DNA of 64,000 nucleotides from Mycobacterium sp. Z3061 (lineage in GTDB: Bacteria > Actinomycetota > Actinomycetes > Mycobacteriales > Mycobacteriaceae), in NCBI RefSeq assembly GCF_031583025.1, contig NZ_CP134062.1, positions 2,852,001 through 2,916,000 of the forward strand, given 5' to 3'. This document shows, one piece after another, positions 1-30,034 of this stretch. Within the stretch, counting starts at the first letter, position 1. Each line of letters opens with the position of its first letter. The notes under the pieces are model-generated. The model worked only from the letters and a program-made list of their open reading frames with translations, was not told where the DNA came from and searched no databases. Position numbers and translations under genes: made by a program.

Positions 1-978
1 CCGATTGCGACATCGTCGGTGCCGGCCAGCGTCGAGAGGACCACGGCTAGGGCGGCGTGGATGACCATGAACGGGGATACCTGCTGGGTGCGGGCCAGGG
101 TGTGGATCTCACGGGTGAGTTCGGCGGGCCAGCCGAAGTCCAGGGTGGCGCCGCGGTAGTCCGCGACGGGCGGGTAGGGGCGGTCGGTGGGCAGTTCCAA
201 TCGGTCGGGCAGGCCGGCCAGGGTGTGTTCCCAGTAGGCCAGCTCGGTGGCTAGGCGGCTGTCGGGGTCGGCCGGGTCGCCGAGCAGGTGGTGGTGCCAC
301 AGGGTGTAGTCGGCGTATTGCACCGCCAGGGGTGTCCAGGTGGGGGCGGCGCCGGCTAGGCGGGCGGTGTAGGCGAGGTTCAGGTCGCGGGCCAGCGGCC
401 CGAGTGACCAGCCGTCGGCGGCGATGTGGTGGACCAGCAGCACCAGCACGTGCCGGTTGGGGCCGGTGTGCAGCAGGGTGGCGCGGATCGGGATCTCGCA
501 ACTGAGGTCGAAGCAGTAGCCCACAGCATCGCCGAGGGCGGCCTCCACCTGTTCGGGCGTGAAACCGCGGGCATCGACGGTGTGCCATGGCACCTTGAGC
601 TCGTCGGGGTCGCAGATGTGTTGGTACCCGATGCCCTCGATCGTGTCGAAGCGGGTGCGCAGGGTTTCGTGGCGGGTGATGACATCCCCGAGGGCAGCCT
701 CTAGGGCGTCAGCGTCGAGGGGCCCGTCGAGCTGCAGGACGGCGGGGATGTTGTAGACCGCCGAGGGGCCCTGCAACTGCTCGAGGAACCACAGCCGGGA
801 CTGGGCAAAGGACACCGGGATCCGGTCTGGGCGCTCCTGGGCCACCAATGGCAGGTGGGTGGTGGTCTCGGTGGTCAGGCGTTGGGCCAGCCCGGCCACC
901 GTGGGGGCGTCGAACAGGTCGGCCACCCGCACGTCGGCGTTCAAGGTAGTGGTGGCGGCGGCGATCAGGCGCATCGCC
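1..978 (-). CDS. NRPS segment 12: T6 end and partial C7, runs off the left edge
   Basis: After the double indel near 985 the sequence encodes, in the restored frame, SAMRLIAAATTTLNADVRVADLF, a linker, then the C7 motifs FAQSRLWFLEQLQG, HHIAADGWSLGPLARDL and TLDFGWPAELTREIHTL. No start codon belongs to it, since it is internal to the NRPS. It matches 9558-10535 almost base for base. A seventh module therefore begins here. Confidence 0.7.
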
Positions 979-3900
979 GAGAGGAGTCGCCCCCAGCTCG
1001 AAGAACGAATCGGTGGCTCCGACTCGCTCGATCCCGAGGATCTGGGAGAAGATCTCGGCCAGGACTTCTTGGACGGGGCCGCCTGGGGCCACGTAGGTGG
1101 CGGTGGTGGGGGTGTAGTCGGGGGCGGGTAGGGCGCGGCGGTCGAGTTTGCCGTTGACCGTCAACGGCAGTTCCTCGAGCACCACGAACGCGGCCGGGAT
1201 CATGTAGCCGGGCAGCACCTCACCCAGTTGGGTGCGGACCCGGGCCACATCCAGCCCCGCCCCAACGTCTGGGGTGGTGAGGTAGGCCACCAGCCGCGGC
1301 TCCCCACCGACATCCCGGCGGGCGATGACCGCCGCCTGCTCGATCCCGTCTAATCCGGTCAGGGCGGCGGCGATCTCCCCGCATTCGATGCGGTAGCCGC
1401 GGATTTTGACCTGTTCATCGGCGCGCCCGAGGTACTGCAACTGCCCATCCGGCCCCCAGGACACGAGGTCCCCGGTGCGATACATCCGCGACCCGGGCGG
1501 CCCGAACGGGCATGCCACGAACCTTGATGCGCTCAACGCGCCATGGCGCCAGTAGCCTGCCGCGACTCCGCTACCGGCCACATACAACTCCCCCGGCCAC
1601 CCCCGGCACCACCGGATGCAGCCAGCCATCCAGCACAAACAGGCCCGAACCGGGCACAGGGGCACCGATGGGCACCGTTGCCTCATCGGCTGTCAGGGGT
1701 GTACTGGCTGTAGCGAAGATGGTGGTTTCGGTGGGGCCGTAGACAGCGCGCAGTGTGCATCGTGGCGCCCAGCGATGTACTAACTCCAGTGCATAGGCTT
1801 CGCCACCGACGACGATGGAGGCGGTGTCTAAGCCTTGGCAGGGGAGTTGGTTTAGGGCTGCTGGTGTTTGGCTGATCATGTTGACCTGCTCCTGGATCAG
1901 GAGGTGGTGCAGGTCGGTGGGGGAGTGCACGATGTGGTCGGGGATGACGACGAGGCGGCCCCCACCTAGGAGGGCGCCGAAGATTTCCCAGACCGAGAAG
2001 TCGAAGCTGGTGGAGTGGCATTGAGACCAGACTGCGTTGTCACCGAGCCCTAATCGCGGCGGCAAGGTTGTGAGCAGGGTGGTGATGTTGTGGTGGGTGG
2101 TGGCGACGCCTTTGGGGGTGCCGGTGGTGCCGGAGGTGTAGATCAGGTACGCCAGGTCGTGGGGGTCGGGGCCGGGTAGCGGGGTCGGAGTGGTGGGCCG
2201 GTCGTCGAGGGTCAGGGTGTCGAGGGTGAGGACCGGGACGGTGGTGGTGGGGAGGTGGGTGGTGAGGGTGGTGGTGGTCAGGACGGCCAGCGGGGTGGTG
2301 TCGGTGAGCATGAACGCGACCCGCGCGGCGGGGTGCTGCGGGTCGATGGGTAGGTAGGCGGCGCCGGTCTTGAGCACGGCGAGGATCGCGGTGATGGCGT
2401 GGGCGCTACGCGGCAGCAGCAGCGCCACGACGGTCCCGGGACAGGCGCCGTGGGTGGTGTGTAGATGGTGGGCGAGTTGGGTGCTGGCGGTATGGAGTTC
2501 GCGGTAGGTCCAGGTGCGGTCTTCGAAGGTTAGGGCCGGTGCGTCGGGGTGGGCTGCGACCTGGTCGGCGAAGACCTGCGGGATCGACACCGGCGGTGCC
2601 GGTGGTGGGGTGTGCAGGCTGTGGTGGTTGCCCCAGGTGTCCAGGTGGGCGTGTTCGAGGGGGGTGAGCAGATCGAGGTGGTGCAGGGGGCGATTGGGGT
2701 GGGTGGTGAACACGGTCAGGGTGTGCTGCCAGCGGCCGAGGAGGTTGTTGATGGTGGCGGGGTCGTAGACGTCGGTGCGGTATTCGACGGTGCCGGTGAG
2801 GGTGGGGGCCCCGTGCTGGTCGCGGTGTTCGGTGAGGGAGAGGACGAGGTCCATGCGGGCGGTGCCGGTTGAGACCGGGTGGGTGGTGATGTCGGCGTCG
2901 CCCAGCGTCATGGGGGTAGCGCTGCCGGGGTGGGTCCAGGGCAGGTTTTGGTAGGCGAGCATGACTTGGATCAGCGGGTGGTGGGTGCGGGAGCGGGCCG
3001 GGTGCAGGCGCTCCACCAGGAGTTCGAAGGGGTGTGTTGGTGTTCGAACGCGTGCAGGCTGGTGTGGCGGATGCGGGCCAGCAGCGCGGTAACAGTGTCG
3101 TGGTGGTCGAGGGGGGTGCGCAGGATCAGGGTGTTGACGAAGAACCCGATCAGGTCATCCAACGCGGGGTGGGTGCGTCCGGCGGTGGGGACTCCGATCG
3201 CGACGTCGCCGGTGCCGGCCAGCGCGGAGAGGACCACGGCCAGGGCGGCGTGGATGACCATGAACGGGGAGACCTGCTGGGTGCGGGCCAGGGTGTGGAT
3301 CTCACGGGTGAGTTCGGCGGGCCAGCCGAAGTCCAGGGTGGCGCCGCGGTAGTCCGCGACGGCCGGGTAGGGGCGGTCGGTGGGCAGTTCTAGCCGGTCG
3401 GGCAGGCCGGCCAGGGTGTGTTCCCAGTAGGCCAGCTCGGTGGCTAGGCGGCTGTCGGGGTCGGCCGGGTCGCCCAGCACCTGGTGGTGCCACAGGGTGT
3501 AGTCGGCGTATTGCACCGCCAGGGGTGTCCAGGTGGGGGCGGCTCCGGTCAGGCGTGCGGTGTAGGCGGTCTGCAGATCCCGGGCTAGGGGCCCGAGTGA
3601 CCAGCCGTCGGCGGCGATGTGGTGGACCAGCAGCACCAGCACGTGCCGGTTGGGGCCGGTGTGCAGCAGGGTGGCGCGGATCGGGATCTCGCAACTGAGG
3701 TCAAAGCAGAAGCCCACAGCATCGCCGACGGCGGCCTCCACCTGTTCGGGCGTGAAACCGCAGGCATCAATGAGCTGCCACGGCACCTCAAGCTCGTCGG
3801 GGTGCCAGATGTGTTGGTACCCGATGCCGTCGATCGTGTCGAAGCGGGTGCGCAGGGTTTCGTGACGGGTGATGACATCGCCGAGGGCAGCCTTCAGGGC

Positions 3901-29180: not shown

Positions 29181-30034
29181 CTATTGTGCGGGATGCATCC
29201 ACAACTCATCCCCAATCTGTGCATTACTCTGATGGGCACAGCTCTGGTATCGCGCGGCAGATATCGGTTATGTTGAAGCGGCACCTGATCAGGGTCAGGC
29301 GGAAGCCCGAGACACTCCTGCAATTGCTGCTGCAGCCGGTTGCTTTCGTGCTGTTCTTTACTTTTGTCGTGGGCCGGTCGATCAGCGCGGATCTGGTGCC
29401 GCGTTACCGCGAATTTCTGTTGCCTGGAATTCAGGCCCAAGCCATTGTCTCCACAATAGTAATTGTCGGTGCTGCAATTTCCTTTGATCTCGAAAATTGC
29501 ATCTTCATTAGATTTCGATCGCTTCCGATTTCCAATTATTCGCCGCTCATCGCACGCGGTCTGATTGCGTTGCTCTATTCAATGATCGGGTATGTTGTCA
29601 TCGGTCTGGTCGGATTTCTTGTCGGTTGGCGGTTCAGCTGCAGCGTTGCCGATGCCGCGCTGGCCCTAGGGTTGGTGCTGACGTTCGGTCTGGGCTTTAT
29701 GTGGCTCGGAATGGCCGTCGGACTGTTGATGAAGACAGTCGAGGGAATAGGCACGATAACGTTCCTAATCACACTGCCAGTCATCGCACTGTCGAATGCC
29801 TTCGCGCCGACACAGCCGATGCCGCACGTGCTGCGTGTGATCGCCGAGTGGAACCCGCTATCCGCTGCTTCTCAGGCCCTGCGTGAACTCACGACGCACG
29901 CTCCGCCTGCGCCGCCGAGCGCACAATTACCGATGCACCACCCAGCGCTGTTCACGCTGATCTACTCCATCACTTTCGCCGTAGTGTTAGCGCCGATGGC
30001 CGTTCGTGCGTACGTGCGCCGCACCTCTCAGTAG
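29177..30034 (+). CDS. DrrB-type ABC transporter permease
   Basis: 285 residues, ABC-2 type. A cytoplasmic N-terminus carries a LKRHLIRVRRKPE segment, followed by about six helices. The first is AFVLFFTFVVG; later ones include ALGLVLTFGLGFMWLGMAVGLL and ITFLITLPVIALSNAF. The conserved FAPTQPMPHVLRVIAEWNPLS stretch is typical of DrrB/DrrC. It is coupled to the ATPase by a 4-base overlap. Its stop lies only four bases from the stop of the convergent qor gene, so this is the right edge of the accessory locus. Confidence 0.9.
   Translation: MTIVRDASTTHPQSVHYSDGHSSGIARQISVMLKRHLIRVRRKPETLLQLLLQPVAFVLFFTFVVGRSISADLVPRYREFLLPGIQAQAIVSTIVIVGAAISFDLENCIFIRFRSLPISNYSPLIARGLIALLYSMIGYVVIGLVGFLVGWRFSCSVADAALALGLVLTFGLGFMWLGMAVGLLMKTVEGIGTITFLITLPVIALSNAFAPTQPMPHVLRVIAEWNPLSAASQALRELTTHAPPAPPSAQLPMHHPALFTLIYSITFAVVLAPMAVRAYVRRTSQ

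What the first reader, a model, noticed from the sequence alone, without database searches (positions are those of the whole stretch)
1..30034. Undescribed lipopeptide locus: repetitive NRPS, MbtH, MmpS/MmpL pair and DrrAB in one accessory block
The sequence shows a starter-type C domain with no upstream carrier, at least six C-A-T modules, an MbtH-like protein, two MmpL transporters with an MmpS, and an ABC exporter. Family knowledge links each part to acylated peptides exported to the mycobacterial surface. The layout recalls glycopeptidolipid loci, but there is no epimerase domain, the modules are internally duplicated, and the locus sits beside qor. I do not know a described product for this arrangement.
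Basis: partly seen in the sequence, partly recalled or inferred. Interest (0 to 1): 0.85.

Follow-up and report, generated by a model that had tools for sequence, protein, structure and literature searches.

The report
Mobile mycobacterial lipopeptide synthesis-and-export island
A 51-kb block of genes, present in this mycobacterium but missing from a close relative, encodes one giant enzyme that most likely strings about a dozen amino acids onto a fatty acid, together with pumps to export the product; the product is unknown and the layout differs from the mycobacterial lipopeptide loci described so far.

Summary
The finding is real and extends beyond the window. One minus-strand synthetase region (genome 2,832,936-2,871,892) reads, as assembled, Cstarter-A-T-(C-A-T)x11-TE; a divergent block mmpS-mmpL-mbtH-mmpL-drrA-drrB follows. 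Together they form a ~51-kb insertion at the 3' end of qor, flanked by a ~110-bp repeat of qor; a same-species genome has the uninterrupted site. Close kin of starter, MmpS and DrrB occur in the same 3 of 396 genus genomes; complete genome G277 keeps the gene order beside open 11- and 5-module synthetases. These lie in a near-identical 10.4-kb tandem pair whose interior 9 kb differs by 2 substitutions but 16 gaps, 14 of the 15 one-base gaps in homopolymers; sequencing error is likelier than decay. Module scaffolds are homogenised within each genome while A-domain cores vary. Best reading: a variable, probably transferred locus for an unglycosylated acyl-peptide exported to the envelope, built without epimerases; akin to GPL, L5P and GL8P loci, but not a member of them. 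Product, organism name and true module number (12 or 9) remain unknown.

The parts
1..19892 (-). 5' half of the non-ribosomal peptide synthetase region (modules 1-6 as assembled; the region continues left to genome 2,832,936 and ends in a thioesterase). Lies in at least 13 frame segments within the window.
18640..19892 (-). Starter-type C domain of module 1 (P0001, 417 aa)
   Evidence: Best PDB matches are acyl/aryl-starter C domains; tree
12706..16911 (-). Module 2 and start of module 3, in one open frame (1,401 aa)
8228..18605 (-). Copy B of the near-identical tandem pair (10.4 kb, offset 9,556)
1..9042 (-). Copy A of the tandem pair, window part (copy A begins 1,327 bases left of the window)
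19893..20939 (.). ~1.05-kb gap between the divergent synthetase and mmpS; 4 short ORFs in it (91-101 aa) have no Pfam match
20940..21365 (+). mmpS (PF05423)
21344..24313 (+). mmpL, first copy (PF03176; TIGR00833)
24416..24652 (+). mbtH-like gene (PF03621)
24912..27854 (+). mmpL, second copy; 94.7% DNA identity to the first over the last 2.24 kb
28173..29180 (+). drrA-like ABC ATPase (TIGR01188 above cut-off)
29177..30034 (+). drrB-like ABC-2 permease
30040..30154 (.). Right copy of the ~115-bp flanking repeat (3' end of qor); left copy at genome 2,830,664-2,830,778, 90% identical
30039..31073 (-). qor, core gene at the island edge (not part of the island)

Best explanation
A probably transferred, strain-variable island makes and exports an acylated peptide. 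Shown by sequence: one long synthetase with a starter C domain, 12 C-A-T modules as assembled (9 if the tandem pair is an assembly error) and a thioesterase; an MbtH-like helper; MmpS, two MmpL and a DrrAB-like ABC pair; insertion at the qor 3' end. Inferred: the starter C domain joins a fatty acyl group (from CoA or a carrier protein; no ligase in the island, so supplied from elsewhere) to the first residue; the modules add residues without epimerisation; the thioesterase releases a linear or cyclic product; MbtH supports the A domains; MmpS/MmpL and DrrAB carry the lipopeptide to the envelope. The frame changes are most likely unpolished long-read errors in a near-identical tandem repeat, so the gene is probably intact in the cell.
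For: First C: the 8 best of 48 PDB matches are RzmA starter (3 entries), EntF, CDA1 starter (2), ObiF1 and VibH; an internal C of the same gene matches 5u89, FscG and Txo2 best, with RzmA at rank 41 of 54. Tree of 74 rows: first C with RzmA, CDA1, EntF and 32 mycobacterial rows (SH-aLRT 100), internal C apart (100). Thioesterase PF00975 at 95.9 bits with cut-off 26.4. Same 3 of 396 genomes for starter, DrrB (99 and 68% identity, next 53%) and MmpS (97 and 76%, next 64%). G277 keeps drrB-drrA-mmpL-mbtH-mmpL-mmpS divergent from an open 12,025-aa synthetase. Empty site in G100. Frame changes only inside the tandem pair; interior 9 kb has 2 substitutions and 16 gap runs, 14 of 15 one-base gaps in homopolymers of 3 or more against 20% of bases in such runs.
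Against: No product, expression or export was tested. The synthetase as assembled is broken at least 13 times. Another repeat in the same genome holds identical stretches up to 3.9 kb without frame breaks, so identity alone does not cause errors; that pair has 374 substitutions, so it is not a matched control. No FadD/FAAL, PKS or acyl carrier gene in the island. The tree is the quick one (the careful search did not finish), and it warns that long branches meet.
Confidence: 0.72

Rival explanations
1. The synthetase is a genuine pseudogene: the island was acquired and is decaying, so no peptide is made.
For: At least 13 frame changes; a second, clearly broken one-module relative exists ~105 kb away (one TGA inside the C domain, pieces in several frames).
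Against: In 9 kb the two copies differ by 2 substitutions but 16 gaps, nearly all one base and in homopolymers; decay would be expected to add substitutions too. Frame changes stop at the edges of the repeat; the adjoining 6,342-aa frame and the 16,070-aa synthetase elsewhere are open. The six export-block genes are open.
Confidence: 0.13
2. It is a species variant of the GPL or GL8P locus and makes a glycosylated lipopeptide.
For: Shared parts: NRPS, MbtH, MmpS, paired MmpL (PMC1885439 and PMC11978893, passages). Sugars could be added by genes elsewhere.
Against: One synthetase, not two; no epimerase-type domain, whereas GL8P has four; no glycosyltransferase, methyltransferase or PKS found among the island genes or its short ORFs.
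Confidence: 0.08
3. The product is a lipopeptide siderophore exported by MmpS/MmpL.
For: MmpS4/5-MmpL4/5 export mycobacterial siderophores (recalled); the starter C resembles EntF and VibH.
Against: No salicylate, hydroxylase or ornithine-type gene or code was seen in the island; A-core residues look neutral (codes read by recalled positions).
Confidence: 0.05

Closest known systems
G277 locus (unnamed complete genome, same GTDB genus), genome 3,759,253-3,827,283
   Same: Same six-gene export block in the same order with ~57-58% GC, divergent starter-C synthetase without epimerases
   Different: 11 modules and a second 5-module synthetase; a FadD-like ligase at the end; other genomic site (qor is at 2.55 Mb)
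GL8P locus of Mycobacterium abscessus (MAB_4690c/4691c; PMC11978893, abstract and passages)
   Same: NRPS, MbtH, MmpL/MmpS, thioesterase, acylated peptide
   Different: Two synthetases (2 + 6 modules), four epimerase domains, glycosyltransferases, fatty-acid CoA ligase
GPL locus (mps1/mps2; PMC1885439, passages)
   Same: mmpS4-mmpL4a-mmpL4b, mbtH, NRPS
   Different: Tripeptide-amino alcohol core, two synthetases, sugars, PKS, Gap; none of these genes found here
L5P of M. avium subsp. paratuberculosis (PMC8103206, abstract start in a search listing)
   Same: Unglycosylated mycobacterial lipopeptide
   Different: Five residues including D-Phe and N-methyl-Val; here 12 (or 9) modules, no epimerase or methyltransferase insert seen
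Mycobacterium plasmid loci (M. riyadhense Mriy_45176_p1; M. chimaera plasmid 5)
   Same: Starter C at 41% and 38% identity; MbtH and an MMPL gene (riyadhense), fatty acyl-AMP ligase (chimaera) nearby
   Different: No mmpS-mmpL-mbtH-mmpL-drrAB order; paired C domains after T (epimerase-like) in chimaera; enlarged A-to-T spacing in riyadhense

Membership tests
Starter-C lipopeptide synthetases | N-terminal C domain of the starter type with no upstream carrier | tested here: met
   tree is the quick one
Starter-C lipopeptide synthetases | N-acylated peptide product | not testable with these tools
   needs mass spectrometry
Starter-C lipopeptide synthetases | Thioesterase or other release domain | tested here: met
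   PF00975 at the end of the last module; GWSYG motif read from the sequence
GPL loci | Two synthetases mps1/mps2 for a tripeptide-amino alcohol | tested here: not met
   one region with 12 modules
GPL loci | Glycosyl- and methyltransferases, PKS, Gap beside the synthetase | tested here: not met
   none among island genes, and 9 short ORFs of the gaps have no Pfam match; genes elsewhere were not tested
GPL loci | MmpS, paired MmpL and MbtH | tested here: met
GL8P-type second loci | Epimerase domains | tested here: not met
   motif order and 3.19-kb unit; a dual C/E activity cannot be excluded by this
GL8P-type second loci | Glycosylated octapeptide | not testable with these tools
   12 or 9 A domains here
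Genomic island | Absent from a close genome with an uninterrupted site | tested here: met
   G100
Genomic island | Integrase or transposase in the island | tested here: inconclusive
   none seen; only part of the short ORFs was scanned

The most novel reading that the evidence does not exclude
The locus is a peptide-diversifying machine caught in the act: module scaffolds (C, T and A flanks) are kept nearly uniform inside each genome by recombination, the substrate-binding A cores are exchanged as cassettes, and the chain is being lengthened by a fresh three-module tandem duplication (9.56 kb). The same homogenisation acts on the MmpL pair. Each lineage would thus make its own unglycosylated, non-epimerised surface acyl-peptide of different length.
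Probability: 0.35. Interest if true: 0.68.

Novelty: new variant of a known kind. Interest (0 to 1): 0.5.

Why it matters
Surface lipopeptides of mycobacteria shape colony form and host contact, and few are known. This locus predicts a long, sugar-free acyl-peptide with its own exporters, present in some lineages only. It also offers an unusually clean case for studying how synthetases change length and sequence: near-uniform scaffolds with variable A cores, and a near-perfect three-module repeat. It is a warning too: exactly such repeats can read as broken genes because of sequencing error.

Tried and rejected
Fatty-acid desaturase remnant left of the synthetase (155-aa ORF, genome 2,831,617-2,832,081): suspected by eye; no Pfam match (with a 35-residue piece, 68 with the whole) and no tblastn match of a plasmid desaturase. 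Rejected. Structured RNAs or tRNA as insertion site: no tRNA in the window, no Rfam hit in window, L009 and L010. Plasmid source of the left edge: one weak 76-bp match in one record. Paper searches: searches returned 0 papers, 54 returned 2 unrelated by title, 46 returned 6 of which only PMC11978893 is mycobacterial lipopeptide genetics by title and abstract; all 10 searches used. Amino acid prediction: substrate codes were read by recalled PheA positions; only module 7 resembles a code that I recall (Thr), so no peptide sequence is claimed. Structure prediction was not run.
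Full report
Setting. The window is G000:C1:2,852,001-2,916,000 of a complete 6.79-Mb genome. GTDB-style kinship puts it in one genus with the mycobacteria; the genome itself is unnamed. The only named close record found is a MAG, Mycobacterium sp. AWTP1-6.

What is there. The synthetase is on the minus strand from window 19,892 leftwards to genome 2,832,936, ~39 kb. Pfam condensation matches give 12 C domains in it, seven of them whole (including the first, matched over part of the model) and five split by frame changes or edges. 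A-domain motifs give 12 A domains, and 10 of 12 T motifs lie uninterrupted in one frame; the other two fall at frame changes. The last module ends in a thioesterase (PF00975, 95.9 bits). The unit length is ~3.19 kb, which leaves no room for an epimerase or methyltransferase insert; the motif order is C-A-T in each open frame. I call this 12 modules as assembled. Divergently, window 20,940-30,034 holds mmpS, mmpL, mbtH, mmpL, drrA and drrB. Nine short ORFs in the two gaps of the island (one left-gap ORF, eight) have no Pfam match; smaller ORFs were not scanned.

Frames. Comparing translated modules with the window gives 12 frame changes, from ~16.95 kb down to ~0.94 kb, and one more just left of the window. 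They lie within two overlapping tandem copies, genome 2,850,673-2,861,042 and 2,860,228-2,870,605 (offset 9,556, three modules). Over the whole 10,389-column alignment the copies differ by 131 substitutions and 22 gap runs (17 of one base, 2 of two, 3 of three). The interior 9 kb (window -1,000 to 8,000) holds 2 substitutions and 16 gap runs, 15 of one base; 14 of these 15 are in homopolymers of 3 or more and 10 of 15 in 4 or more, against 20% and 8% of bases. Missing bases occur in both copies (7 runs in A, 9 in B). This is what I would expect of long-read errors that short reads could not correct (inference). Controls: the remaining 6,342-aa frame of the same gene and a 16,070-aa synthetase at 0.177-0.225 Mb are open. 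The latter contains a 20-kb pair with 374 substitutions and 6 gap runs and identical stretches up to 3,869 bp. That control counts partly against me: identity of 3.9 kb did not lead to frame breaks there, so the longer identity here is needed to explain them. Whether the tandem duplication itself is real cannot be settled from the sequence.

Starter C domain. Of 48 PDB sequences matched by the first C domain, the best eight are RzmA starter C (7c1k, 7c1h, 7c1p; the identity of these entries is given in PMC7804268, passages), EntF, CDA1 starter C (two), ObiF1 and VibH. EntF, ObiF1 and VibH start with aryl acids (recalled), so an aryl donor is not excluded by this alone. The matched internal C domain prefers 5u89, FscG and Txo2, and finds RzmA at rank 41 of 54. 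In a tree of 74 C domains the first C groups with four first C domains of G277 (SH-aLRT 98), with 28 mycobacterial homologues (100) and with RzmA, CDA1 and EntF (100); 38 internal C domains form the other side (100). The tree is the quick one, because the careful search did not finish, and the program warns of long branches that meet. The first NCBIfam matches of module 1 are MxcG and EntF models, far below their cut-offs.

Distribution. At E <= 1e-110 the first C occurs in 3 of 396 genus genomes: own, G046 (98%) and G277 (four copies, 53-54%) (at most 4 candidates per genome were scored). In a looser search 75 of 100 relatives had some match at E <= 0.001, the best mycobacterial ones at ~40%. 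DrrB: 105 of 396 at E <= 1e-50, but only G046 (99%) and G277 (68%) exceed 53%. MmpS: 120 of 396 at E <= 1e-45, with G046 (97%) and G277 (76%) ahead of 64%. MmpL was compared in four genomes only: 82 and 76% in G277, fragments at 92-97% in G046, best 63% in G100. The set thus travels together. In G277 the order drrB-drrA-mmpL-mbtH-mmpL-mmpS / synthetase is the same, next to open synthetases of 12,025 aa (11 A domains) and 5,574 aa (5), and G277 has two further loci with 6 and 3 A domains (the last in several frames). G046 is a fragmented assembly; its contigs carry both ends of the island joined to the same flanks.

Island. In G100, called same species, qor and the PPE/ctaB side are contiguous on one contig: the left flank aligns to 2,259-7,019 (92.0%) and the right flank to 6,911-9,876 (95.9%), overlapping by 109 bp. 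In the window's genome this stretch is present at both edges, 115 bp at 90% identity. The insert is thus ~51.3 kb (genome 2,830,779-2,882,039). G100 has no match to the starter at the threshold, none to the drr genes above short scraps and only distant NRPS DNA. No integrase was seen. GC is 0.69 in the synthetase, 0.58 in the export block, 0.67 in both flanks; G277 shows the same split (0.66-0.67 and 0.57), so the two halves keep their own make-up across genomes.

Homogenised scaffold, variable core. Internal C domains cluster by genome, six of this island together (100) and 15 of G277 together (100). Nine island A domains whose sampled region starts in one frame were compared with 24 of G277 (the remaining three island A domains are split by frame changes; one G277c module was left out): core median identity within the island is 57%, while the A flanks have 93% and 85%. 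For modules 7 and 10 the core is closer to G277 (74 and 71%) than to any other island core (57 and 54%); for 11 and 12 the two are nearly equal (62 against 60, 69 against 68); for 1, 2, 6, 8 and 9 the best match is inside the island (98-100%). So cassette behaviour is clear for two of nine. Exchange of A cores is known in other synthetases (PMC9205934, passages). The two mmpL genes show the like: 94.7% DNA identity over the last 2.24 kb here and 98.5% over 2.38 kb in G277.

Peptide. A-core sequences, read at substrate positions that I recall for PheA, fall into six types: modules 1, 3, 4 and 6 alike; 2, 5, 8 and 9 alike; 7, 10, 11 and 12 each alone (modules 3, 4 and 5 from pieces, 4 and 5 incomplete). 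Module 7 looks threonine-like by recall. I make no further prediction.

Acyl supply. No FadD/FAAL gene lies in the island. A FadD-like gene at genome 2,987,256-2,988,914 (NF005850, 690.5 bits, cut-off 572) is 79% identical to the one beside the second G277 synthetase and lies next to a broken one-module relative with a starter C at 60-70% identity. It is a candidate supplier in trans (inference).

Comparison with the known. GL8P (PMC11978893; abstract and passages) has two synthetases, four epimerase domains, glycosyltransferases and a fatty-acid CoA ligase; GPL loci (PMC1885439; passages) have mps1/mps2, sugars and PKS. Shared are NRPS, MbtH, MmpS and MmpL. PMC11978893 also says that second loci vary in size and predicted product across species; I could not open its table, so this locus may be listed there. 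I found no paper on this arrangement in ten searches (not all aimed at it). Verdict: new variant of a known kind, works like a mycobacterial lipopeptide locus, not a member of the GPL or GL8P families as tested.

Noticed in passing
   Followed up: partly
G000:C1:2,981,885-2,988,914 (L100): Broken one-module starter-C synthetase remnant (one TGA inside the C domain, pieces in several frames) beside a FadD-like gene that is 79% identical to one next to a G277 synthetase.
   Followed up: partly
window 21,344-27,854; G277:C1:3,761,205-3,767,441: The two mmpL genes are nearly identical over their last ~2.3 kb in both genomes but diverge at the start, as if homogenised by gene conversion.
   Followed up: partly
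L155 (M. chimaera plasmid 5), L154 (M. riyadhense plasmid Mriy_45176_p1): Mycobacterial plasmids carry starter-C synthetases with MbtH and MMPL genes, or with a fatty acyl-AMP ligase, desaturase and glycosyltransferase: such loci do move on plasmids.
   Followed up: partly
L009:17056-18666 (genome 2,829,056-2,830,666): A PPE gene with a PPE-PPW C-terminal region directly abuts the left copy of the island's flanking repeat.
   Followed up: no
window 38,089-56,487: Right of qor lie ordinary core genes: two SufBD-type proteins, a P-type ATPase, an ABC-F-like protein and aconitase.
   Followed up: no
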